Shown: in pieces, positions 16,546 through 24,844 of the stretch
How the letters are laid out: every line of letters begins with the position of its first letter
How positions within the stretch are numbered: position 1 is the stretch's first letter
The notes under the pieces: generated by a model
Seen by the model: the letters and a program-made list of their open reading frames with translations, nothing else
What the model was told of the DNA's origin: nothing
Database searches by the model: none
Program-made: the position numbers and the translations under genes
Assembly: GCA_013361475.1 (NCBI GenBank)
Contig: JABFYB010000274.1
Location: forward strand, 1-52,917
Reading direction: 5' to 3'
Origin: Hamadaea sp.
GTDB lineage: Bacteria; Actinomycetota; Actinomycetes; Mycobacteriales; Micromonosporaceae
DNA length: 52,917 bases

Positions 16546-17235
16546 TCAGGCGCTGTTGAGCAGCTCCCGCTCGTGGGGCATCAGGTAGGAGCCGCGGTTG
16601 CGGCGGTCGATGGCGCGGTCCATGGCCGCGGACTTGCGGCGCCCGGCGGCTGCGCGGGCGCGGAGGTCGTCCTCGGTCTCGCGGCGCAGCTCGTCGGCGG
16701 CAACCTGCTCCGGGGTGCGCTCGGCCATCCGGAGCCGGTCACGGGTGCGGAGCAGCTCGGCGTTCGTGTCGAACAGCGCGGCGTGGAGCGCGTCCCGGTC
16801 GCTGGCGATCTCCTTCGGTCGCTTCGTCGGTGCCGGGGGGAACCGGAGGCCCATCGCGAACCCGATCCGGTGCGTCTCGGCGGTCGAGGTGGCCATGGCG
16901 ATCGCGAGGACCAGGTCGCCGAGGGTGATCCCGACGTGGAACTCGGCCGCGGCGTCACGGTTGGTGGGCTGCTCGGCCCGACGGGACTCGGCAGACAGCC
17001 GGGCCGAGCAGCGTCCACACACGCGCCGGCCGCCGAGGTCGAGCGCGCTACCGGCGCGCTGGATGACCGTCAGGCGCCTCGTGCGTGCGGAGCAGACCGA
17101 CCGGGCAGTCCGGGGGACGTACCGCCCGGTCGGAGTCAGAGGGCCGACGTAGAGGTGGAACACCTCGGAGCCGGGACGGGCGACGGGGAGCGCGTGGAGG
17201 CGTGCGGCGGTCAGACCGAGGTGCTGGCCGCTCAT
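16546..17235 (-). CDS. hypothetical protein with zinc-binding pair
   Basis: 229 aa. Cys48 and the CGRC pair near 74-77 suggest a zinc site in the N-terminal half. The C-terminal half is a long charged helix region (LLRTRDRLRMAERTPEQVAA). Third gene of the early operon, after Cro-like and excisionase-like proteins. Function unknown. Confidence 0.55.
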   Translation of the reverse strand: MSGQHLGLTAARLHALPVARPGSEVFHLYVGPLTPTGRYVPRTARSVCSARTRRLTVIQRAGSALDLGGRRVCGRCSARLSAESRRAEQPTNRDAAAEFHVGITLGDLVLAIAMATSTAETHRIGFAMGLRFPPAPTKRPKEIASDRDALHAALFDTNAELLRTRDRLRMAERTPEQVAADELRRETEDDLRARAAAGRRKSAAMDRAIDRRNRGSYLMPHERELLNSA

Positions 17236-17423
17236 GCGTCCTCCAGCCCGTCGTACCAGTCCTGCATGGACTGCGCGTTGACGAGGACGCGACGACCGAC
17301 CCGCTTCGCGGACACCAGGCCGGCGGCGATGAGCTCGTCGACCATCCAGACGCTGATGGCGTACTTCTCGGCCGCGTCCTTGCGGGTGATGGCGGCCTTC
17401 GCGTTCAGGGTCGCGGTGCTCAC
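17232..17423 (-). CDS. excisionase-like MerR-type HTH protein
   Basis: 63 aa. ITRKDAAEKYAISVWMVDEL then AGLVSAKRVGRRVLVNAQ is the HTH_17/excisionase fold: a helix-turn-helix followed by the RV...R..V wing. It could serve as the recombination directionality factor for the integrase at 21135-22508, or as an early regulator. It overlaps the Cro-like gene by 4 bp, as expected for a gene switched on at induction. Confidence 0.8.
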   Translation of the reverse strand: MSTATLNAKAAITRKDAAEKYAISVWMVDELIAAGLVSAKRVGRRVLVNAQSMQDWYDGLEDA

Positions 17424-17701
17424 GCCGGCACCGCCTCGCGCGAGCGCGGCACGTAGTCGGTCACGAGCGACCCGGGACGGAGCCCGTAGGCGACCTCGAG
17501 CGCCGCGAGCACCTGCGGCGAGGCACCGCGGAGACCGTTCTCGATCGCGGAGAGTGCACCGCGGGTCAGCGGCCGGTCGAGAACCTCGGAGGCGGCGGCG
17601 CAGACCTCATCGAGCGTCTTGCCGCTGATGTACCGAATATCGGGCAAAGAGATGTGCGGAGGGGTCCGCCGCTCTCGTTGCGTGTCGTACTTCGAGGCCA
17701 T
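17420..17701 (-). CDS. Cro-like XRE-family repressor
   Basis: 93 aa from the ATG at 17701. LTRGALSAIENGLRGASPQ with the following helix is an XRE-type HTH (about residues 45-70). It is the first gene of the leftward operon, divergent from the immunity repressor across a 176-bp operator region. The position and size match the lytic repressor of a genetic switch. An upstream ATG at 17731 would add 10 residues and run into the operator region, so the internal start is preferred. Confidence 0.8.
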   Translation of the reverse strand: MASKYDTQRERRTPPHISLPDIRYISGKTLDEVCAAASEVLDRPLTRGALSAIENGLRGASPQVLAALEVAYGLRPGSLVTDYVPRSREAVPA

Positions 17702-17722
17702 GGCGAGGAACGTACAAGACTC

Positions 17723-17856
17723 GGCAAACATTCGCCACTACTTCGCCGCGGAAGCGGCAAACGTGTCGCCGCCTGCGGAACCACATCGGTGGAACTAAGA
17801 ACCGCTGCTGACTTGCACTGTTGTGGTTTGCCAAACTGGTCGAAGGTTTGCCAAAC
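17723..17856. promoter_or_regulatory. immunity operator region
   Basis: Two identical palindromes GTTTGCCAAAC at 17826-17836 and 17846-17856, 20 bp (two helical turns) apart. Two half-sites GGCAAAC lie at 17723-17729 and 17756-17762, closer to the cro-like gene. The region separates the divergent cro-like and repressor genes, so these are the likely binding sites of one or both. Binding is inferred; the sequence identity is directly visible. Confidence 0.7.
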
Positions 17857-17877
17857 ATTTTTGGGAGCCTTGCCTAC

Positions 17878-18318
17878 ATGAACGAACCGCCCGTGCGCCA
17901 GGACTTCGCGCACTTCTGCCAGGTCTTCCAGATCTGGTTCGCGACGAAGGGCTGGTCACAGGCGCGCCTTGAGGCCGCCGGCGGGCCATCGAAGCCCATC
18001 CAGAAGGCACTCCTCGCCGGCGACTGGACGAGCACGCGACCCCTCACCGTTACCGAGAAGATCGACCGCGGATTTGCGTGGCCGCCCGGGACGGCCTGGC
18101 GAGTCCTCACGACCGGCTACGACCCCATTGCCGACCCGCCGGGGGTCTCCCTCGTCAAGTACCCGCCCCCACAGCCGGAGGCAACGGAGTCCGACGAGGA
18201 CGACTCGCTCCTGTATCGCCGGCCGGACGGGCTATCCGACGCCGAGTGGGAGCGCCTCAAGAAAGACACTCGCGAGTACCTCGAGTGGCAGATCGAGCGC
18301 GCCGCCCGGGAACGTTGA
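17878..18318 (+). CDS. immunity repressor
   Basis: 146 aa from ATG 17878, with GGGAG upstream. Residues 8-70 (FCQVFQIWFATKGWSQARLE, then AAGGPSKPIQKAL ... TVTEKIDRGFAWPPGTAWRVL) match a small HTH family of actinobacteria and phages: the Q-A-R-L-E helix and the E-K-I-D-R-G...W.PG ending. The C-terminus is acidic with a helical end. The only rightward gene beside the operators, so it is the best candidate for the lysogeny repressor. Confidence 0.8.
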   Translation: MNEPPVRQDFAHFCQVFQIWFATKGWSQARLEAAGGPSKPIQKALLAGDWTSTRPLTVTEKIDRGFAWPPGTAWRVLTTGYDPIADPPGVSLVKYPPPQPEATESDEDDSLLYRRPDGLSDAEWERLKKDTREYLEWQIERAARER

Positions 18319-18371
18319 GATCGCTGCGCAGCGGTCTCCTCTCGGGGGATACTGCCGACGCCGGGCGTCGG
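18317..18371 (+). terminator. hairpins after the repressor gene
   Basis: 18317-18338 folds with arms GAGAtCGCTG/CAGCGgTCTC directly after the stop codon. 18355-18371 is a perfect 8-bp stem CCGACGCC/GGCGTCGG around one G. Neither has a clear U-tract. They may end or attenuate the repressor transcript before the ImmA-like gene. No gene is seen in 18319-18464. Confidence 0.4.
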
Positions 18372-18464
18372 TAACACTGTCGGTGGGAGCGCCGAAGATG
18401 ACACCCGGGCACATGAGGACAGGGCCGAGCGGTCGGGCCTGCAACACTCGGGAAGAGGGGCCAC

Positions 18465-18920
18465 GTGAAGACGACGGGCAGTGATCGGGCGCTGTTCTAC
18501 GATCCGGGGGCCGACGCCGCTCGGCGTCACCCGGACTGGGTGATCAGGCATCGCGATCTCCGGGGCGTTCCCGAGGTCATGTGTCCTGAGCGGAAGGTCA
18601 TCCTCATCGAGGACGCCCAGGATCGAGCGACGCGGCGATGCAACCTCGCGCACGCGCTCGCGCACATCGACCTCGGTCACCAGGCACAGACCGGCGTCCT
18701 GTCCAAGCGTCAGGAGCTGGCCGCCGACAAGCTCGCGGCCCGGCGTCTGGTCCGTGCGTCCGCGCTGGCAGAGGCGGCGATCTCTGCCGAGTCGTTCGAG
18801 GAGCTCGCGCACGAGCTCGACGTCGACGAGCGGATGCTCTGGGTGCGCATCAAGTACCTGCAGCGCAAGGAGCGGAACCTGATCTTCGAGAGGCTCGACG
18901 AGAAGGTCCTGACCGCGTAG
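18465..18920 (+). CDS. ImmA/IrrE-like protein lacking the catalytic Glu
   Basis: 151 aa, GTG start with GAGGGG upstream. LAHALAHIDLGH (61-72) aligns with the LAHELAHIxLGH zinc motif of ImmA/IrrE peptidases, and QELAADKLAARRL (83-95) with the third ligand helix. His63 and His67 are kept, but the catalytic Glu of HExxH is Ala64. ImmA proteases cut phage repressors to end lysogeny. This one may bind zinc without cleaving, or act as a partner or anti-repressor. The repressor gene lies directly upstream. Confidence 0.78.
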   Translation: MKTTGSDRALFYDPGADAARRHPDWVIRHRDLRGVPEVMCPERKVILIEDAQDRATRRCNLAHALAHIDLGHQAQTGVLSKRQELAADKLAARRLVRASALAEAAISAESFEELAHELDVDERMLWVRIKYLQRKERNLIFERLDEKVLTA

Positions 18921-18931
18921 ACGCAGGTCCG

Positions 18932-18944
18932 GGTGTTAAACACC
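18932..18944. promoter_or_regulatory. GGTGTTAAACACC palindrome
   Basis: A perfect 13-bp palindrome (GGTGTT-A-AACACC) 5 bp left of the target duplication. Without the insertion it would lie just upstream of the 54-aa RHH gene that now starts at 20995, so it is a candidate operator of that gene, now about 2 kb away. Its half-sites resemble the paired sites inside the insertion. Confidence 0.45.
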
Positions 18945-18989
18945 TGGCCCTAGCTGTTGTGTCTCGTGAGGTTGTTGACACGCACAGGT

Positions 18990-19163
18990 CTACTTCCTCT
19001 TCACGTACCGGGTGAGGTAGGCCCGTAGCACGGCTCCCAGGTTGGTGCCCTCAGCCCGGGCCTTGACCTGCGCGGCCTTCCACAACTCGACATCGCAGCG
19101 GAACGACTGCAGCGGCGTCTTCGGCTTGTTCGGGCTCACGCCCGGCAGGCTACTCGGTGTCAT
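18990..19163 (-). CDS. RHH DNA-binding protein (IS passenger)
   Basis: 57 aa. SFRCDVELWKAAQVKARAEG then TNLGAVLRAYLTRYVKRK is a ribbon-helix-helix domain. ATG at 19163 overlaps the previous stop (ATGA), and the gene ends 25 bp inside the left inverted repeat. Last gene of the passenger operon. It is the best candidate to bind the paired GGTGT/ACACC sites before the operon; this is inference. Confidence 0.7.
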   Translation of the reverse strand: MTPSSLPGVSPNKPKTPLQSFRCDVELWKAAQVKARAEGTNLGAVLRAYLTRYVKRK

Positions 19164-19513
19164 AACGACCTCGCCTCCACGTCGCCGCTCGGCTCGGCGG
19201 GGAGGACGCAGCGGTCGGCGTCCCAACATCCGGTGTCCGTGCACAGGTTCCCCGGAGGCGCGATGCACGGCTCGGGAGCGACGGCGCGGCGGATGGCTTC
19301 AAGGAGGGTCAGCGGCAAGTCGGCCTCAGGGTGGGTGTCGACGTAGGACAACACCGCACGGAGCAGGTCGTACCGACGCCCGGCGTCCACGTGGGGACGC
19401 CAACCGGCGGCTATGACCTTCTGGGCTGCGCGCTCCGCGTAGGCGCACTCGACCCGCCTCTCCGGGTCATGGTTGCCCGTGCAGACGCAGATCTGGTTGG
19501 ACAGGCTGCTCAC
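19160..19513 (-). CDS. hypothetical Cys-containing protein (IS passenger)
   Basis: 117 aa from a GTG at 19513 that overlaps the first passenger gene's stop (GTGA). An N-terminal ICVCTG and a C-terminal CTDTGCWDADRC give Cys pairs. The middle is helical (YAERAAQKVIAAGWRPH, LLRAVLSYVDTHPEADLPL). A longer 173-residue reading exists upstream but would overlap the first passenger gene fully. No family recognised. Confidence 0.6.
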   Translation of the reverse strand: MSSLSNQICVCTGNHDPERRVECAYAERAAQKVIAAGWRPHVDAGRRYDLLRAVLSYVDTHPEADLPLTLLEAIRRAVAPEPCIAPPGNLCTDTGCWDADRCVLPAEPSGDVEARSL

Positions 19514-19734
19514 AGAAATGCACTCCTCTGGTCGAGATCGATGCAGGCATCCCCTGCCGGAGTCGTTTCCCACAGCCACTCGCCTTGGTGACGCCGCACT
19601 GTGGCGAGACCCCGGCGGCGAAGCGACTCCAATGTCCGAGCGTTGGAGCCCGACCCCTTGGAGCCAAGGAACAGCGCCCACAGGCAGTCGAACTGCGAGT
19701 CGGAAAGCCTGCTGCCTCTAACGCTTGGCGTCAT
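19510..19734 (-). CDS. small winged-helix-like protein (IS passenger)
   Basis: 74 aa. SDSQFDCLWALFLGS, then NARTLESLRRRGLATVRR and LWETTPAGDACI reads as a small winged helix of the kind that selects between regulatory states (helix, recognition helix TLESLRRRGL, then wing). First gene of the passenger operon. Its promoter looks leaderless. Confidence 0.6.
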   Translation of the reverse strand: MTPSVRGSRLSDSQFDCLWALFLGSKGSGSNARTLESLRRRGLATVRRHQGEWLWETTPAGDACIDLDQRSAFL

Positions 19735-19776
19735 AACACCACTCTACGCTTGGTGTTATGACACCCGCAAGTCCCC
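19727..19776 (-). promoter_or_regulatory. leaderless promoter with paired palindromes for the passenger operon
   Basis: On the minus strand TTGCGG is followed after 18 nt by TAGAGT (19746-19741), and the ATG at 19734 begins 6 nt later, the geometry of a leaderless actinobacterial mRNA. GGTGTTATGACACC (19752-19765) and GGCGTCATAACACC (19727-19740) are near-identical in opposite orientation, 25 bp apart, flanking the -10 box. Each is itself a GGTGT-N4-ACACC-type palindrome (one mismatch in the second). They look like operators for a passenger regulator. Confidence 0.55.
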
Positions 19777-19873
19777 GGTCTAGGCGAAATCACGCCGATA
19801 CCGTGCGAGTGAACGACACAACGCGCCCGTGGGGCTACTGCACCAGCCAGACTGACCGGCACCGGTGGATGGC

Positions 19874-20959
19874 ATGACCACCCACCCCAACGCACCCCTG
19901 ACCCCTGAGGGCCGCCGCCGCCTGTGCGAGCGCATCGACACCGGCCGTCCCATCGCCCACGTCGCAGCCGAGGGCGGCATCAGCCGCGTCGCGCTGTCCG
20001 GCTGGTACAAGCGGTGGCTCCTCCACGGCGAGGAAGGACTCCAGGACCGCTCATCGCGCCCGGAGTGCAACCCGAACGCCACCGACCAGGACATCGTCGA
20101 CATGGTGCTCCAGATCCGGGTGGCCGAGAAGTGGGGAGCTGCGCGCATCGCGGCGTTCCTGGCCGAGTGTGGCGACGGCTCCATCGTCGTGTCGTCGGCG
20201 ACCGTGCACCGCATCCTCCAGCGCAACGGCCTCGGCCGCGTGAAGGACATGGACCGCCCGACCGGCGAGGCCAAGCGCCCCGTGAACCGCTACGAGCACG
20301 ACGCCCCCGGCGACATGATTCACGTGGACATCAAGAAGGTCGGCCGCATCCCCCACGGCGGCGGCTGGGCCGTCCATGGTCAGGGCACCGACGAGCACCG
20401 CGCCAGCAAGCGGAAGGCGTCCCGCACGGGCCGCACCGGCTACGCCTACCTCCACAGCGCCGTCGACGACCACAGCCGCCTGGCGTACACCGAGGTCCTC
20501 AACGACGAGAAGGGCACGACCGCCGCCGAGTTCTGGCTGCGCGCCGTCCTGTTCTTCCGCGAGCACGGCATCCACACCATCCACCGGTGCCTGACCGACA
20601 ACGGCTCCCCGTACCGCTCCAACGCCTTCAAGGAGGCGCTGGAGGCCACCCGCACGGTCCACAAGCGGACCGCGCCCTACACGCCCCGCACCAACGGCAA
20701 GGTCGAGCGGTACAACGGCATCATGGTCGCCGAGTGGCTGTACGTCCGGGCCTACGACAGCGACGACGAGCGCACGTCGTACCTGGCCGACTTCCTGAAC
20801 TACTACAACCACGAGCGCCCGCACTCGGCGCTGGGCTACAAGCCGCCGGCCATCCGCGTCCCCATCACGACCCACCGGGCCGTGCCCCAGTCAGAGGGAC
20901 TGCCTCACATCACCGTCGAGCACTTCGAGGAACAGCCCTCGCTGTTCGACGAGATGTAA
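19874..20959 (+). CDS. IS481-family transposase
   Basis: 361 aa from the ATG at 19874; an ATG three codons upstream is possible. N-terminal HTH (PEGRRRLCERIDTGRPIAHV then AAEGGISRVALSGWYKRW, 11-48). The rve-type DDE core has Asp152 in HVDIKKVGRIP, Asp242 in LTDNGSPY and Glu278 in NGKVERYNG, a D-x35-E spacing. YYNHERPHSALGYKPP near the end is typical of the family. All three catalytic residues are present, so the element may still be active. Confidence 0.92.
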   Translation: MTTHPNAPLTPEGRRRLCERIDTGRPIAHVAAEGGISRVALSGWYKRWLLHGEEGLQDRSSRPECNPNATDQDIVDMVLQIRVAEKWGAARIAAFLAECGDGSIVVSSATVHRILQRNGLGRVKDMDRPTGEAKRPVNRYEHDAPGDMIHVDIKKVGRIPHGGGWAVHGQGTDEHRASKRKASRTGRTGYAYLHSAVDDHSRLAYTEVLNDEKGTTAAEFWLRAVLFFREHGIHTIHRCLTDNGSPYRSNAFKEALEATRTVHKRTAPYTPRTNGKVERYNGIMVAEWLYVRAYDSDDERTSYLADFLNYYNHERPHSALGYKPPAIRVPITTHRAVPQSEGLPHITVEHFEEQPSLFDEM

Positions 20960-20994
20960 AGAACGTCCTGAGACACAACACCTAGCGTTCGCGC

Positions 20995-21159
20995 GTGCCC
21001 AATCAGCCCCGCAGCTCGATCATCGGGTTCCGGGACACGGGCGACCTGCGCGAGGCGCTCGAGCGGATCGCTGCCGACCGTGGCGAGAAGCTCTCGGACA
21101 TCGTCCGGCGTGCGTGCGAGGAGTACGTGCGCCGCTACCCGCTCGACGAGGACGACTGA
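20995..21159 (+). CDS. RHH protein next to the integrase
   Basis: 54 aa, too short for most gene finders. SIIGFRDTGDLREALERIAA then DRGEKLSDIVRRACEEYVRR is a ribbon-helix-helix fold. GTG start at 20995. The gene starts 9 bp after the right target duplication of the insertion, so its own promoter has been displaced. It overlaps the integrase 3' end convergently by 25 bp. A role as excisionase or integrase regulator is plausible. Confidence 0.65.
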   Translation: MPNQPRSSIIGFRDTGDLREALERIAADRGEKLSDIVRRACEEYVRRYPLDEDD

Positions 21160-22508
21160 CCGAGCGCCGGCGGCTCGGGCGGCGCCGGGACGAGCTGCAG
21201 CTGCGCGGCCACGCGCGCGAGCGCCGCGGCCGCGTGCTGGGTCTGCACGTGCTGGTAGCCGCGGGTCGTGATGATCGAGGAGTGGCCCATGATCGCGGTG
21301 ATGACCTTCGGGTCTACGCCCAGCTCGAGCAACAGCGACGCGGTGGTGTGCCGCGCCTCGTGCCGGACGTAGTGCCGGTGGCCCTCGGGGTGCTTGACCT
21401 CCCGGTCGAGCAGGATCGACGCGGTGTCCTGCAGCGCGCGCCACTCCTCGACGTCTTCCTCCGGACTGGCCGGCCGCCCGTCGAGCGCTGGCCAGACGAG
21501 GTCGTGCTCGTTCGCGGGTGAGACGTCGCGCCATGCCCGCAACGCGTTCTCGATCCACGCGACCATCGGGATGACGCGGTAGCCGCTCTCGGTCTTCAGC
21601 TCGACGAGGTGCCACTGGCCCACGAGCTGCCGCGTCTTGTAGCCGAGGGGGATGCGGAACCCGCGTTCCTTGTCCTTCGGGTCGACGTAGGGCAGGGGCT
21701 GGAGCTGCCACTCGATCCGCATCAGGCCCTTCTCAAAGTCGACGCACGACCAGGTCAGGCCGAGGCACTCCATCGGGCGGACGCCTTGGAGCAGTGCTGT
21801 CGCCCAGCGCGATCCGTGGGGTAGGCCGGCGGCGACCTGGAGCACGGCGACGGCCTCGTCGAGCTGGAGGCTGGTTCGGTCGCTCGAGCCGGGCGGGGGA
21901 GCGTGCACCAGGAGGATGCGCTGGGGGACGTCGTTGCCGTTGAGGGCGGCGTCCTTGAACATCTGCATCATCACGCTGTGCGCGCGTCGTGCGGTGCCGG
22001 TCGTCAGCCCGGCCTCGATGATCGCCTCGGCGACCGCTTCGACGTCTTGGGGAGTGAGGCTCTCCAGCCGCCGGGTGCCGATCGTCGGCACGATCCAGTT
22101 CTTCATGAGCGAGACGTCGGCTTTGTAGGCGTTGGGGCGTTGCGTGGTCTCGCGCTTCTTCAGCCACTTCACCGACCAGCTGCGCACCGTCTCTCGGGAC
22201 TTGGTGGCGATCGCCTTGCCCTCGGCTGCGATCTGCTTCCGCTTCCGGTCGAGCTTCGTCTTCGCCTCGGCCTCGGTCCGGCCGTAGACGGTCACCTGGC
22301 GGCGCTTGCCGTTCGGGTAGGTGCCGGCGTCGATGCGGCCCATCCAGAGTCCGGTGCACTTGTGGGCCGGGCGCACCTTGGTGGGCTTGCCCGTCTTCGG
22401 GTGGGGCGGGCCGGGGACCAGGTCGGGGCAGCCCTTGCCGGTGTCACAGCGCTGCGTGACGCCGCCAGATCCGTACTGCCGGCGCTTGTTCCTCGCCTTG
22501 ACTGCCAC
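21135..22508 (-). CDS. int: tyrosine integrase (attP-associated)
   Basis: 457 aa from GTG 22508 with GGAGG 7 nt upstream. Catalytic set Arg244 (GVRPMECLGL), His383-x2-Arg386 (RHEARHTTA), His409 (MGHSSIITTRGYQH) and Tyr418. N-terminal part: a basic arm-binding region with CDTGKGC, then a core-binding SAM-like domain (about 110-190). Adjacent to a tRNA-Thr-derived attP with paired arm-type repeats, so it is the phage integrase. It converges on the RHH gene. Confidence 0.93.
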   Translation of the reverse strand: MAVKARNKRRQYGSGGVTQRCDTGKGCPDLVPGPPHPKTGKPTKVRPAHKCTGLWMGRIDAGTYPNGKRRQVTVYGRTEAEAKTKLDRKRKQIAAEGKAIATKSRETVRSWSVKWLKKRETTQRPNAYKADVSLMKNWIVPTIGTRRLESLTPQDVEAVAEAIIEAGLTTGTARRAHSVMMQMFKDAALNGNDVPQRILLVHAPPPGSSDRTSLQLDEAVAVLQVAAGLPHGSRWATALLQGVRPMECLGLTWSCVDFEKGLMRIEWQLQPLPYVDPKDKERGFRIPLGYKTRQLVGQWHLVELKTESGYRVIPMVAWIENALRAWRDVSPANEHDLVWPALDGRPASPEEDVEEWRALQDTASILLDREVKHPEGHRHYVRHEARHTTASLLLELGVDPKVITAIMGHSSIITTRGYQHVQTQHAAAALARVAAQLQLVPAPPEPPALGQSSSSSG

Positions 22509-22521
22509 CCTCAGGCCTCCG

Positions 22522-22540
22522 TACACACATCGCTACACAC
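22522..22540. repeat. paired arm-type sites, integrase-proximal
   Basis: TACACAC at 22522-22528 and again at 22534-22540, 12 bp apart, just upstream of the integrase start. The same pair with the same 12-bp spacing recurs on the other side of the core at 22749-22767. The layout matches integrase arm-binding sites of lambda-type attP. Confidence 0.6.
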
Positions 22541-22624
22541 ATCTCCACCGTACTCGACAGCACTCCACACGCCTTGTTTTGAGCGTGAATCTGCCCGATC
22601 TGGCGTAGTCAGCCTACCTGAGAC

Positions 22625-22673
22625 ATTCACTCGTAATGAATAGGTCGTCGGTTCGATTCCGACAGGCGGCTCA
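22625..22673 (+). other. attP: attP core from tRNA-Thr(CGT) 3' part
   Basis: The anticodon arm ATTCA-CTCGTAA-TGAAT (22625-22641, anticodon CGT at 22632-22634), variable loop, T-arm GTCGG-TTCGATT-CCGAC (22647-22663), acceptor strand AGGCGGC, discriminator T and CA are all present. No matching 5' half (expected to begin GCCGCCT) precedes it, so it is not a complete tRNA. Integration here would rebuild the 3' end of the host tRNA gene. The crossover lies within this segment. Confidence 0.8.
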
Positions 22674-22680
22674 GTGACCA

Positions 22681-22718
22681 AAACGGCCCCTCACCTGCGC
22701 GAACAGGTGAGGGGCCGT
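22681..22718 (+). terminator. terminator after the tRNA remnant
   Basis: Perfect 16-bp stem AACGGCCCCTCACCTG with its complement at 22703-22718, and a 6-nt loop, followed by CTTCGTT. Position and type match terminators that follow host tRNA genes, so the phage probably supplies a replacement terminator on integration. The rest of 22509-22851 holds only the att site and arm repeats; no gene is seen. Confidence 0.75.
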
Positions 22719-22748
22719 TCTTCGTTCGGGGTCAGCGGATCGGGGCCG

Positions 22749-22767
22749 TACACACGTTCATACACAC
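22749..22767. repeat. paired arm-type sites, distal side
   Basis: TACACAC at 22749-22755 and 22761-22767, 12 bp apart, repeating the motif and spacing of the pair at 22522-22540 on the other side of the att core. Likely P'-arm binding sites of the integrase. Confidence 0.6.
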
Positions 22768-22851
22768 TTCCTGACTCCACAGGAACTCCACCGACCACCA
22801 CAGGACGACTATTGGCGGGAATGTCGGCGGCGCCATCTACCGTCGCGTCTC

Positions 22852-23130
22852 GTGTCCACGACCCCTGCCGATGACCTCTCCGACCTCCACCGCGAGATCC
22901 TCGTGTTCGAGCGCCAGTGGTGGAAGTACGCCGGCGCGAAGGAGTCCGCGATCGTCGAGCGGTTCGACATGACCGCGACCCGCTACTTCCAAGTCCTCAA
23001 CGCGCTGATCGACCACCCAGCCGCGCTCGAGTTCGACGCGCAGCTGGTGAACCGGCTCCGCCGCCTCCGCGACGCCCGCCGCGCGCAGCGGACTGCGCGA
23101 AAGCGCCCGGAGGAGCGCGCATCCGCATAG
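22852..23130 (+). CDS. DUF3263 family protein
   Basis: 92 aa from GTG 22852. LHREILVFERQWWKYAGAKE then SAIVERFDMTATRYFQVLNAL is the DUF3263 core, a small helical domain found in actinobacterial chromosomes and phages. The second half looks like an HTH, so DNA binding is possible. It begins the rightward group just beyond attP. Confidence 0.85.
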   Translation: MSTTPADDLSDLHREILVFERQWWKYAGAKESAIVERFDMTATRYFQVLNALIDHPAALEFDAQLVNRLRRLRDARRAQRTARKRPEERASA

Positions 23131-23806: not shown

Positions 23807-24709
23807 TCAGGCGGTGAGGCGAGCCGAGACGATGTGTACCGGGTGCTTGTCGTGGTTGCTCATGCCGAGGTCGTAGTGCCGCGACGTGGTGCGCGGGTCG
23901 GCGTGCCCGGCGAGCCACTGCGCGTCGCGGATGGTCATGCCGTCGTCGAGCTGGCTGGTGATCAGCGATGCCCGGATGAGGTGCGGGTTGATCGGCCGGG
24001 TGATCCCGGCGCGCTTCGCGATGGTCCGAACGAGCCCGGCCGCGGTGGACCGGTGCAGCCGGCGGCCGTCCCGAGTAGTGAGGAGCGGGCCCTGCGTCCG
24101 ATCTCCGGCCGCGTCCTGCAGCGCCAGGAGCAGCGCGACGGGCAGGGGGAGCCCGACGACCTTGCCGCCCTTCCGCTTCACGCGGAGGATCGGGTGGCCG
24201 CGCTCGACGTCGGAGTAGTCGTCCACGTCGATGCTGCACGCCTCGCTGATGCGCAGCCCGTGGAGGCACAGCAGCTCGGACAGCGCCCAGTGTCGGCCGC
24301 CGAGCTCCTTCGCGGCTCGGCGGAACGCACGCAGCTCCTCACGCTCGAGCGGGGACTTCTTCCCGTAGTCGACCTTCGGGAGCCGGACGTGCACGGCAGG
24401 GTCACGGTCGGTGACGCCTTCGAGGAACGCGTAGCGGTAGAACCCCTTCACCGGCCGGAACATCGTGTTGACAGTCGAGGCCTTCAGGCCGCGGACCTCG
24501 TGGAGCTCGCGGACGTACAGCGAGATGTGAGCCCGGTCAATGCGGAGCGGGTCGATCCCGTGCTCGCGGCACCAGGTGAGCCACCGATTGAAGTGGGACT
24601 CGTAGAGGGCCCGGGTGTTGCCCTCGTAGTCGGCGAGGTAGCCGATGGCGGTCCGCTCGAGAGGCGGAAGGCTGCCGAGAAGGGCAGCGGGGACGATAGC
24701 GTTCGACAC
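23807..24709 (-). CDS. second tyrosine recombinase (XerD/Cre-like)
   Basis: 300 aa from GTG 24709 (GGAGG 7 nt upstream). N-terminal SAM-like domain (about 18-105). Catalytic Arg153 (LHGLRISEA), a Lys in RVKRKGGK (176-183), His243-x2-Arg246 (NPHLIRASLI), His269 (AGHADPRTTSRHYD) and Tyr279: a complete set. No arm-binding N-terminal extension, as in Xer and Cre. Because another integrase sits at the tRNA attP, its task is probably different: resolution, a second integration choice, or inversion. Confidence 0.9.
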   Translation of the reverse strand: MSNAIVPAALLGSLPPLERTAIGYLADYEGNTRALYESHFNRWLTWCREHGIDPLRIDRAHISLYVRELHEVRGLKASTVNTMFRPVKGFYRYAFLEGVTDRDPAVHVRLPKVDYGKKSPLEREELRAFRRAAKELGGRHWALSELLCLHGLRISEACSIDVDDYSDVERGHPILRVKRKGGKVVGLPLPVALLLALQDAAGDRTQGPLLTTRDGRRLHRSTAAGLVRTIAKRAGITRPINPHLIRASLITSQLDDGMTIRDAQWLAGHADPRTTSRHYDLGMSNHDKHPVHIVSARLTA

Positions 24710-24807
24710 GGTCGATCCTCCGAGGTAACGGTCGGTTGGTTCGGCAAGGCCCTCGTCTGGTGCGCCAACACCGGCGGGGGCCGCTTCGTCTGCGAGTCTA
24801 GATGTGC

Positions 24808-24844
24808 TTGACAATGGCGTCTAGCGCCGCTTGTCATGTTGACA
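24808..24844 (+). promoter_or_regulatory. leaderless promoter with inverted repeats
   Basis: TTGACA (24808-24813), 18-nt spacer, TGTCAT (24832-24837), then the ATG at 24844 after 6 nt: a leaderless arrangement. The same bases form inverted repeats: a near-palindrome TGACAA...TTGTCA from 24809 to 24836, with GGCG-TCTAG-CGCC at its centre, and TGTCA-TGT-TGACA at 24832-24844. This is a likely operator for the HTH gene product, and possibly also for the divergent recombinase. Confidence 0.55.

What the first reader, a model, noticed from the sequence alone, without database searches (positions are those of the whole stretch)
18949..20986. IS481-type element carrying three passenger genes inside the phage immunity region
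Ends TGTTGTGTCTC at 18955-18965 and inverted at 20970-20980, 21 of 26 matches, and an exact CCTAGC duplication on both sides define a 2,026-bp insertion. IS481 elements are usually about 1.0-1.3 kb with only a transposase. This one also holds a divergent operon of three small genes (winged-helix-like, Cys-containing, RHH) with its own leaderless promoter and paired operators. It is a cargo-carrying IS sitting in an apparently complete phage, which phages seldom tolerate.
Basis: partly seen in the sequence, partly recalled or inferred. Interest (0 to 1): 0.8.

Follow-up and report, generated by a model that had tools for sequence, protein, structure and literature searches.

The report
Phage-borne transposon with self-regulated cargo
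A small jumping element sitting in a bacterial virus carries three extra genes between its end and its transposase gene, one of which probably encodes a repressor that switches the extra genes off, and related elements in other viruses and plasmids carry different cargo at the same place.

Summary
In detail: 18955-20980 is a 2,026-bp element with 21/26 inverted ends and a CCTAGC duplication. Its transposase passes NCBI's curated IS481 cut-off. Relatives show the same type of ends and NCTAGN duplications, mostly as compact ~1.1-kb elements. The window copy falls in a clade (12 rows, SH-aLRT 95, quick tree) in which every sampled member has cargo between the left end and the transposase. Its closest sampled relatives (SH-aLRT 97) lie on other viral contigs. 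Cargo-bearing IS481 transposons are known (TnRErm46, ISArsp12), so this is a new variant of a known kind.

New here: the cargo is a phage-style, probably autoregulated module. The ribbon-helix-helix (RHH) gene is conserved in the phage-borne element L138, while the other cargo is a DNA methyltransferase. Both elements have GGTGTYATRACACC-type operators 24-25 bp apart, in the same leaderless-promoter geometry, with a further operator at the RHH start codon. A scan for this operator pair in viral contigs returned 17 others; 13 have a related RHH gene within about 1 kb. In L138 the operators also reach the transposase start. The functions of the winged-helix-like and Cys-containing proteins are unknown. 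No empty site was found, and activity is untested.

The parts
18949..18954 (.). left copy of target duplication CCTAGC
18955..18980 (+). left inverted repeat (IRL), ends in TTGACA
   Evidence: 21/26 to IRR; same type in relatives
18990..19163 (-). RHH (Arc-like repressor) gene, 57 aa
   Evidence: PHROG 6506, 60.5 bits; Pfam RHH_1 18.1 bits, below its cut-off of 20.5; hits in 63 phage records at E<=0.1; homologue in element L138, 48% identity, E 2.9e-12
19156..19166 (.). operator-like site holding the RHH start codon (GGTGTCATAAC on +)
   Evidence: equivalent site in L138 at 4596
19160..19513 (-). Cys-containing protein, 117 aa (GTG start at 19513), function unknown
   Evidence: no reliable family hit; no match in plasmids, phages or viral contigs; model pLDDT 56
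19510..19734 (-). winged-helix-like protein, 74 aa
   Evidence: PHROG 14380 weak, E 0.007; low-confidence H-H-strand-strand-H model, pLDDT 56
19727..19740 (.). operator 1 (GGCGTCATAACACC on +), holds the start codon of the winged-helix-like gene
   Evidence: same layout in L138
19741..19746 (-). predicted -10 hexamer TAGAGT, six bases before the ATG (leaderless)
   Evidence: sequence; L138 has TAAGAT-GGTGTC-ATG at the same spacing. The tool's sigma-70 consensus scan found no promoter here
19752..19765 (.). operator 2 (GGTGTTATGACACC), 25 bp from operator 1, in the -35/-10 spacer
19877..20959 (+). IS481-family transposase (frame opens at 19865)
   Evidence: NF033577 302.7 bits against a cut-off of 224; D150, D240, E276 invariant in 8 clade members
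20955..20980 (-). right inverted repeat (IRR)
20981..20986 (.). right copy of target duplication CCTAGC

Best explanation
The element is an IS481-family transposon of the NCTAGN-target type that inserted between phage genes. It belongs to a clade whose sampled members all carry cargo between the left end and the transposase, and which swap that cargo. In two members of the phage-borne branch (window and L138) part of the cargo is an RHH module of a kind found in many other phage contigs. The RHH protein (inferred) binds GGTGTYATRACACC-type operators that overlap a leaderless promoter, and so represses the cargo operon and its own gene. In L138 the operators also reach the transposase start, so the same protein probably keeps transposition low there; for the window copy, control of the transposase is only inferred. 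The winged-helix-like and Cys-containing genes are exchangeable passengers whose benefit is unknown. Shown: ends, duplication, family, clade, cargo exchange between relatives, operator layout, operator-RHH co-occurrence. Inferred: DNA binding, repression, activity, benefit.
For: IR and TSD, and the same type in relatives. IS481 cut-off passed. Clade A: 12 rows, one side of a branch with SH-aLRT 95, all cargo-bearing; window+L138+L139 97; 3 changes of cargo state on 134 rows against 25.1 in shuffles. Cargo exchange: L036 and L041 share transposase DNA (83%) and 36 bp of left end but no cargo similarity at blastn E<=1e-5. RHH conserved in L138 with different partner genes. L138 has GTGTCATGACACC-type sites x4 at exact 24-bp spacing plus one at the RHH start. 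Same promoter geometry: TAGAGT-GGTGTT-ATG and TAAGAT-GGTGTC-ATG, each with an operator in the 18-base spacer. Operator-pair scan of viral contigs: 18 contigs, one of them L138's own. Of the other 17 (L181 and L182 being the same phage), an RHH HMM hit lies within about 1 kb in 13 at E<=1e-3 and in 7 at E<1e-17. Controls: 0 of 12 viral loci, and 1 of 80 genome loci, the one being cargo of clade-A element L041. In 394 genomes the pair occurs in 2: the window's own at 19730-19765, and G164, which also has an RHH hit beside it (E 2.1e-14); the reversed pattern in none of the rows listed.
Against: L139, the nearest transposase, has no RHH hit and no operator array; its one 8-mer match lies in its right end, so the module is not fixed even in the phage branch. 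No operators of this sequence occur in the seven other clade-A loci tested (L036, L038, L041-L044, L046). In the window the operators lie about 110 bp from the transposase start. The tool's promoter scan found nothing. No empty site, and no second copy in the own assembly, which is 87.7% complete. The operator pattern was drawn from the window and L138, so those two are not independent support. The tree is a quick one, the window row is flagged as long, and in the first tree the clade had SH-aLRT 93 with 6 changes of state, on labels partly set by default.
Confidence: 0.75

Rival explanations
1. The element is a cargo IS481 transposon, but the three genes are an inert capture from a phage; the RHH protein regulates only its own operon and has nothing to do with transposition. 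(This overlaps with the best explanation in all but the control of transposition and the benefit.)
For: In the window the operators are about 110 bp from the transposase start. L139 lacks the module. The same operator-RHH pairing occurs in phage loci in which no related transposase was found (17 loci searched).
Against: In L138 the operator array fills the gap between the two divergent genes, the last copy ending about 10 bp before the inferred transposase start.
Confidence: 0.4
2. The three genes are a toxin-antitoxin or anti-phage defence module: RHH as antitoxin-like repressor, one of the other two as toxin or effector.
For: RHH autorepressors are common antitoxin domains (recalled). Small overlapping genes with the RHH gene last.
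Against: No PADLOC, Pfam or NCBIfam hit of note for the Cys-containing or winged-helix-like protein. In other phages the RHH gene stands first or follows other small genes, and neither of the two proteins has a tblastn match (E<=0.1) in those loci.
Confidence: 0.1
3. The ends are chance repeats or a decayed compact IS, and the three genes belong to the phage.
For: IS481 elements are usually compact (83 of 101 here).
Against: 21/26 ends with a 6-bp CTAG-core duplication, the same type of ends in relatives, all 12 sampled clade members with cargo; no left-end remnant nearer the transposase.
Confidence: 0.02

Closest known systems
TnRErm46 / ISRe46 (Rhodococcus equi; PMC6794481, passages seen)
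   Same: IS481-family transposase at the right, cargo between left IR and transposase, NCTAGN duplication, TGTTG...-type ends; insertions may fall at stop codons
   Different: 6.9 kb, resistance and regulator cargo; its IR sequence resembles that of the other cargo-bearing group (B) here, by reading; no RHH/operator module in the passages seen
ISArsp12 (Arthrobacter plasmid pA2H1; PMC6305408, passages seen)
   Same: IS481, 2,615 bp, two passenger genes, duplication CCTAGA
   Different: ArsR regulator plus permease; on a plasmid
Clade-A elements L138 and L137/L139 on IMG/VR viral contigs (this work)
   Same: closest sampled transposases (63-67%), cargo between left end and transposase, phage setting; L138 shares RHH gene, operators and promoter geometry
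   Different: cargo otherwise unrelated: DNA methyltransferase (L138); small HTH and Cys-rich proteins, no RHH hit (L139)
Actinophage Arc-like repressors (PHROG 6506), e.g. DillTech15 gp67, Getalong gp45
   Same: homologous RHH protein; Getalong has GGTGCTATAACTCC and GGTGTTATAACTCC upstream of gp45
   Different: phage genes, not on a transposon as annotated; function untested in the records seen

Membership tests
IS481 family | transposase passes the curated family model | tested here: met
   NF033577 302.7 bits, cut-off 224; Pfam LZ_Tnp_IS481, rve, rve_3 above their cut-offs
IS481 family | DDE catalytic residues | tested here: met
   D150, D240, E276 invariant among 8 clade-A transposases
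IS481 family | TGT...ACA inverted ends (recalled) and 6-bp duplication (the majority length, PMC10045372 passages) | tested here: met
IS481 family | about 1.0-1.3 kb, transposase only (usual, recalled; not required) | tested here: not met
   2,026 bp with three extra genes; known exceptions
Cargo-bearing IS481 transposon | passenger genes inside the same ends, own transposase | tested here: met
Cargo-bearing IS481 transposon | transposes as a unit | not testable with these tools
   single copy in the own assembly; L044/L045/L062 share one 2.7-kb unit in different genera, which supports unit movement for a relative only
Arc-like phage repressor (PHROG 6506) | profile match of the 57-aa protein | tested here: met
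   60.5 bits
Arc-like phage repressor (PHROG 6506) | binds its operators and represses | not testable with these tools
   only co-occurrence and layout shown

The most novel reading that the evidence does not exclude
A phage-adapted transposon lineage has taken over an actinophage repressor-operator circuit, so that transposition and cargo are silent in a lysogen and released when the phage enters a cell without the repressor. Because other phages use the same operator, the transposon's repressor and resident or incoming phages could regulate one another. Here the element also sits between the phage's own Arc-like RHH gene (20995) and a GGTGTTAAACACC palindrome (18932-18944), 18 bp upstream of that gene in the uninterrupted site.
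Probability: 0.2. Interest if true: 0.8.

Novelty: new variant of a known kind. Interest (0 to 1): 0.6.

Why it matters
It shows a route by which phage-type accessory genes (DNA modification enzymes, small regulators) may travel between phages and plasmids of actinobacteria on a 2-4 kb transposon, and it predicts a repressor-operator pair shared by two of these transposons and many phages. Either part can be tested directly: operator binding in vitro, and repression or release of transposition in Mycobacterium smegmatis.

Tried and rejected
Phage relatives of the insertion site: none by megablast of 17000-23000 against 50,697 phage records, nor in viral contigs with the integrase, ImmA-like or Cys-containing protein (single-protein scans, which find close relatives only). 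ImmA homologues in 5 other genomes have no integrase, RHH or repressor homologue in the short loci fetched (2.4-3.4 kb). So no empty site could be shown for the window; an empty-site test for L139 failed too (one search returned only that phage and its near-copy).

L051 looked like a cargo element, but its insert is a second transposase (IS701-like by eye) and it was recoded as not cargo. L049 is two compact copies head to head. The automatic end finder chose wrong ends for L036, L044, L045 and L062; these were set by hand from the copy L037, blastn boundaries and sequence. For L062 no left duplication was found. Rows dropped from the tree: 17 loci without recognisable ends or with partial or broken copies (L009, L011, L012, L016, L018, L020, L024, L040, L069, L084, L090, L112, L120, L154, L157, L166, L172), duplicate copies (L001, L003, L037, L121, L137, L151), and the short hits L002, L005, L006. 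L112 (partial, clade-A-like) has no left end in its contig.

Weak hits of the Cys-containing protein in 9 other genomes (L122 and L130 inspected) were judged chance: partial, one with an internal stop. Single-sequence AlphaFold models of the Cys-containing and winged-helix-like proteins have mean pLDDT 56 and were not searched further. The enrichment of DNA-modification cargo in clade A (4 of 10 distinct cargos against 0 of 11 in group B, Fisher p 0.035) is weak: cargos were counted by hand, group B was judged by reading translations, not by HMM, and L158 was counted with L066 from its length and ends without translating it. Circular closure of the contig: no terminal overlap. Literature on the operator: 'GTGTCATGACAC' is found in 2 papers, on human papillomavirus epidemiology and on polylysine synthetases by their titles (listing only); searches gave no description of this module in their listings. 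The library holds open-licence papers only.

Full report
What is there. The element runs from 18955 to 20980 (2,026 bp). Its ends match at 21 of 26 positions, and CCTAGC is repeated exactly on both sides. In the whole window, 21 pairs of 26-mers at 0.77-4 kb spacing reach 21/26, and this is the only one with an exact 6-bp duplication. The transposase passes the NCBIfam IS481 model (302.7 bits, cut-off 224). The flanks, joined on paper, show an intergenic site between an ImmA/IrrE-like gene (18465-18920) and a small RHH gene (20995-21159); neither frame is broken.

The setting is a phage. PHROG hits show terminase large subunit, portal, scaffold, major head protein, tail proteins and a ParB-like protein, a tyrosine integrase and an HTH protein of the repressor region. 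The contig is 52,917 bases long, exactly the window, and its ends do not overlap, so completeness is plausible but not shown.

Relatives. Of 151 loci with a transposase, window included, 110 have an exact 6-bp duplication at ends of this type and 101 of these read NCTAGN; of these 101, 83 have at most 200 bp between left end and transposase, 1 has 200-600 bp and 17 have more (automatic ends; among the long ones, L049 and L051 are not cargo). Cargo is therefore the minority state, and it is clustered: on a tree of 134 rows, 3 changes of state suffice (shuffled mean 25.1, 0 of 500 as low). Group B (15 rows) resembles published resistance transposons: regulator plus exporter or enzyme in most, by reading the translations. 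Clade A (12 rows, SH-aLRT 95) holds the window copy, and all 12 rows carry cargo; compact copies at 50-55% identity from the same order (L152, L153, L170, L171) fall outside it. The tree is a quick one without bootstrap, and the window row is flagged as long. In a first tree of 114 rows the clade had 10 rows and SH-aLRT 93.

Cargo exchange. The elements of Mycobacterium intracellulare (L036) and M. hubeiense (L041) share 83% transposase DNA and 36 bp of the left end, yet have no cargo similarity at blastn E<=1e-5. Three clade-A rows (L044, L045, L062) share one 2.7-kb unit at about 94% identity in two Streptomyces and a Pseudonocardia MAG, as expected if the whole unit moves. Clade-A cargo includes a Mom-like/XF1762 protein (L037), a D12 adenine methyltransferase (L038), an N6/N4 methyltransferase (L042) and another DNA methyltransferase (L138): 4 of 10 distinct cargos.

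The phage branch. The two closest transposases, L138 (63%) and L139 (67%; L137 is a near-copy), are on viral contigs. With the window they form a group with SH-aLRT 97. L139's element lies between a head maturation protease and a head scaffold gene, next to a major head protein gene, and its right duplication overlaps the protease stop codon. L138's flank encodes an endolysin and a minor tail protein. Its element holds a DNA methyltransferase, and at its left end an RHH gene 48% identical to the window's.

The regulatory module. In L138, sites of the form GTGTCATGACACC (two exact, two with one or two differences) occur four times at exactly 24-bp spacing, filling the gap between the methyltransferase start and the transposase start, and once more at the RHH start. 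In the window, two such sites lie 25 bp apart, one over the start codon of the winged-helix-like gene and one in the promoter spacer, and a third over the RHH start. The promoters are superposable: 18-base spacer with an operator, TAGAGT or TAAGAT, GGTGTY, then ATG; the tool's consensus scan of the window does not see a promoter there. I then scanned 2.9 million viral contigs for the operator pair alone: 18 contigs, one of them L138's. Of the other 17, an RHH HMM hit lies within about 1 kb in 13 at E<=1e-3, 7 of them below 1e-17; two more are at E<1e-2 and two have none. L181 and L182 are the same phage, and two other pairs are related at about 84% over 0.2-0.4 kb. As controls, 0 of 12 viral loci and 1 of 80 genome loci gave a hit, the one being inside clade-A element L041; the control used a tenfold larger database size and so a stricter threshold, and its loci were simply those to hand, not matched. 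In 394 genomes the pair occurs in 2, the window's own and G164, where an RHH hit (E 2.1e-14) lies beside it; the reversed pattern gave none in the listed rows. Several of these phages have the same plan as the window, with operators, one or two small genes, then an operator at the RHH start (L181, L197). Mycobacteriophage and Gordonia phage homologues are in part annotated as Arc-like repressors, and Getalong gp45 has two related sites upstream.

How it works. Most likely the transposase, acting at the two 26-bp ends, moved the whole 2 kb into a CTAG target (rare here: 18 in the window against 38 expected from trinucleotides). The cargo operon starts leaderless at 19734 and is shut off by its own last product, the RHH protein. 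That the transposase is under the same control is suggested by the layout in L138 and only inferred in the window. What the winged-helix-like and Cys-containing proteins do is not known.

Known or new. IS481 transposons with cargo and CTAG-core duplications are in print (PMC6794481 and PMC6305408, passages seen), and most IS481 elements make 6-bp duplications (PMC10045372, passages seen). I found no description of a phage-borne IS481 lineage with an RHH/operator module (listings only; open-licence papers). It is therefore a new variant of a known kind.

Noticed in passing
L181-L198 (IMG/VR viral contigs): GGTGTYATRACACC operator pairs around a -10-like hexamer with an RHH gene nearby in most: a regulatory module of phages for which I found no description, often leaderless in layout with the start codon inside an operator.
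   Followed up: partly
window 18932-18944: Perfect palindrome GGTGTTAAACACC; in the uninterrupted site it lies 18 bp upstream of the phage's own RHH gene (20995), so the insertion separates gene and possible operator by 2 kb. The pattern with one mismatch is not rarer than chance in the window.
   Followed up: partly
window 23807-24814: A second tyrosine recombinase (Phage_integrase family) about 1.3 kb beyond the phage integrase at 21135-22526.
   Followed up: no
window 20930-20956: Transposase C-terminus EEQPSLFDEM resembles a sliding-clamp binding motif (motif recalled, not tested); some other clade-A copies have QLTFDDL or QLSFDDL near their end.
   Followed up: no
window, whole: CTAG occurs only 18 times in 52.9 kb; 4 are stop codons of my rough gene calls, which may spare genes from elements with this target.
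   Followed up: partly
L037, L038, L042: Three different DNA-modification cargo proteins carry a similar short Cys motif (YCxxACRxRA.R-like by eye; weak zf-CGNR Pfam hits in L037 and L038) at one end.
   Followed up: no
L049 (Streptomyces nigrescens): Two compact IS481 copies head to head, bounded by two right ends and one CCTAGG duplication.
   Followed up: no
L041 4001-4330: Weak RHH hit in the cargo of the M. hubeiense clade-A element; L038 also has an RHH-like gene at its left end by weak hits.
   Followed up: partly
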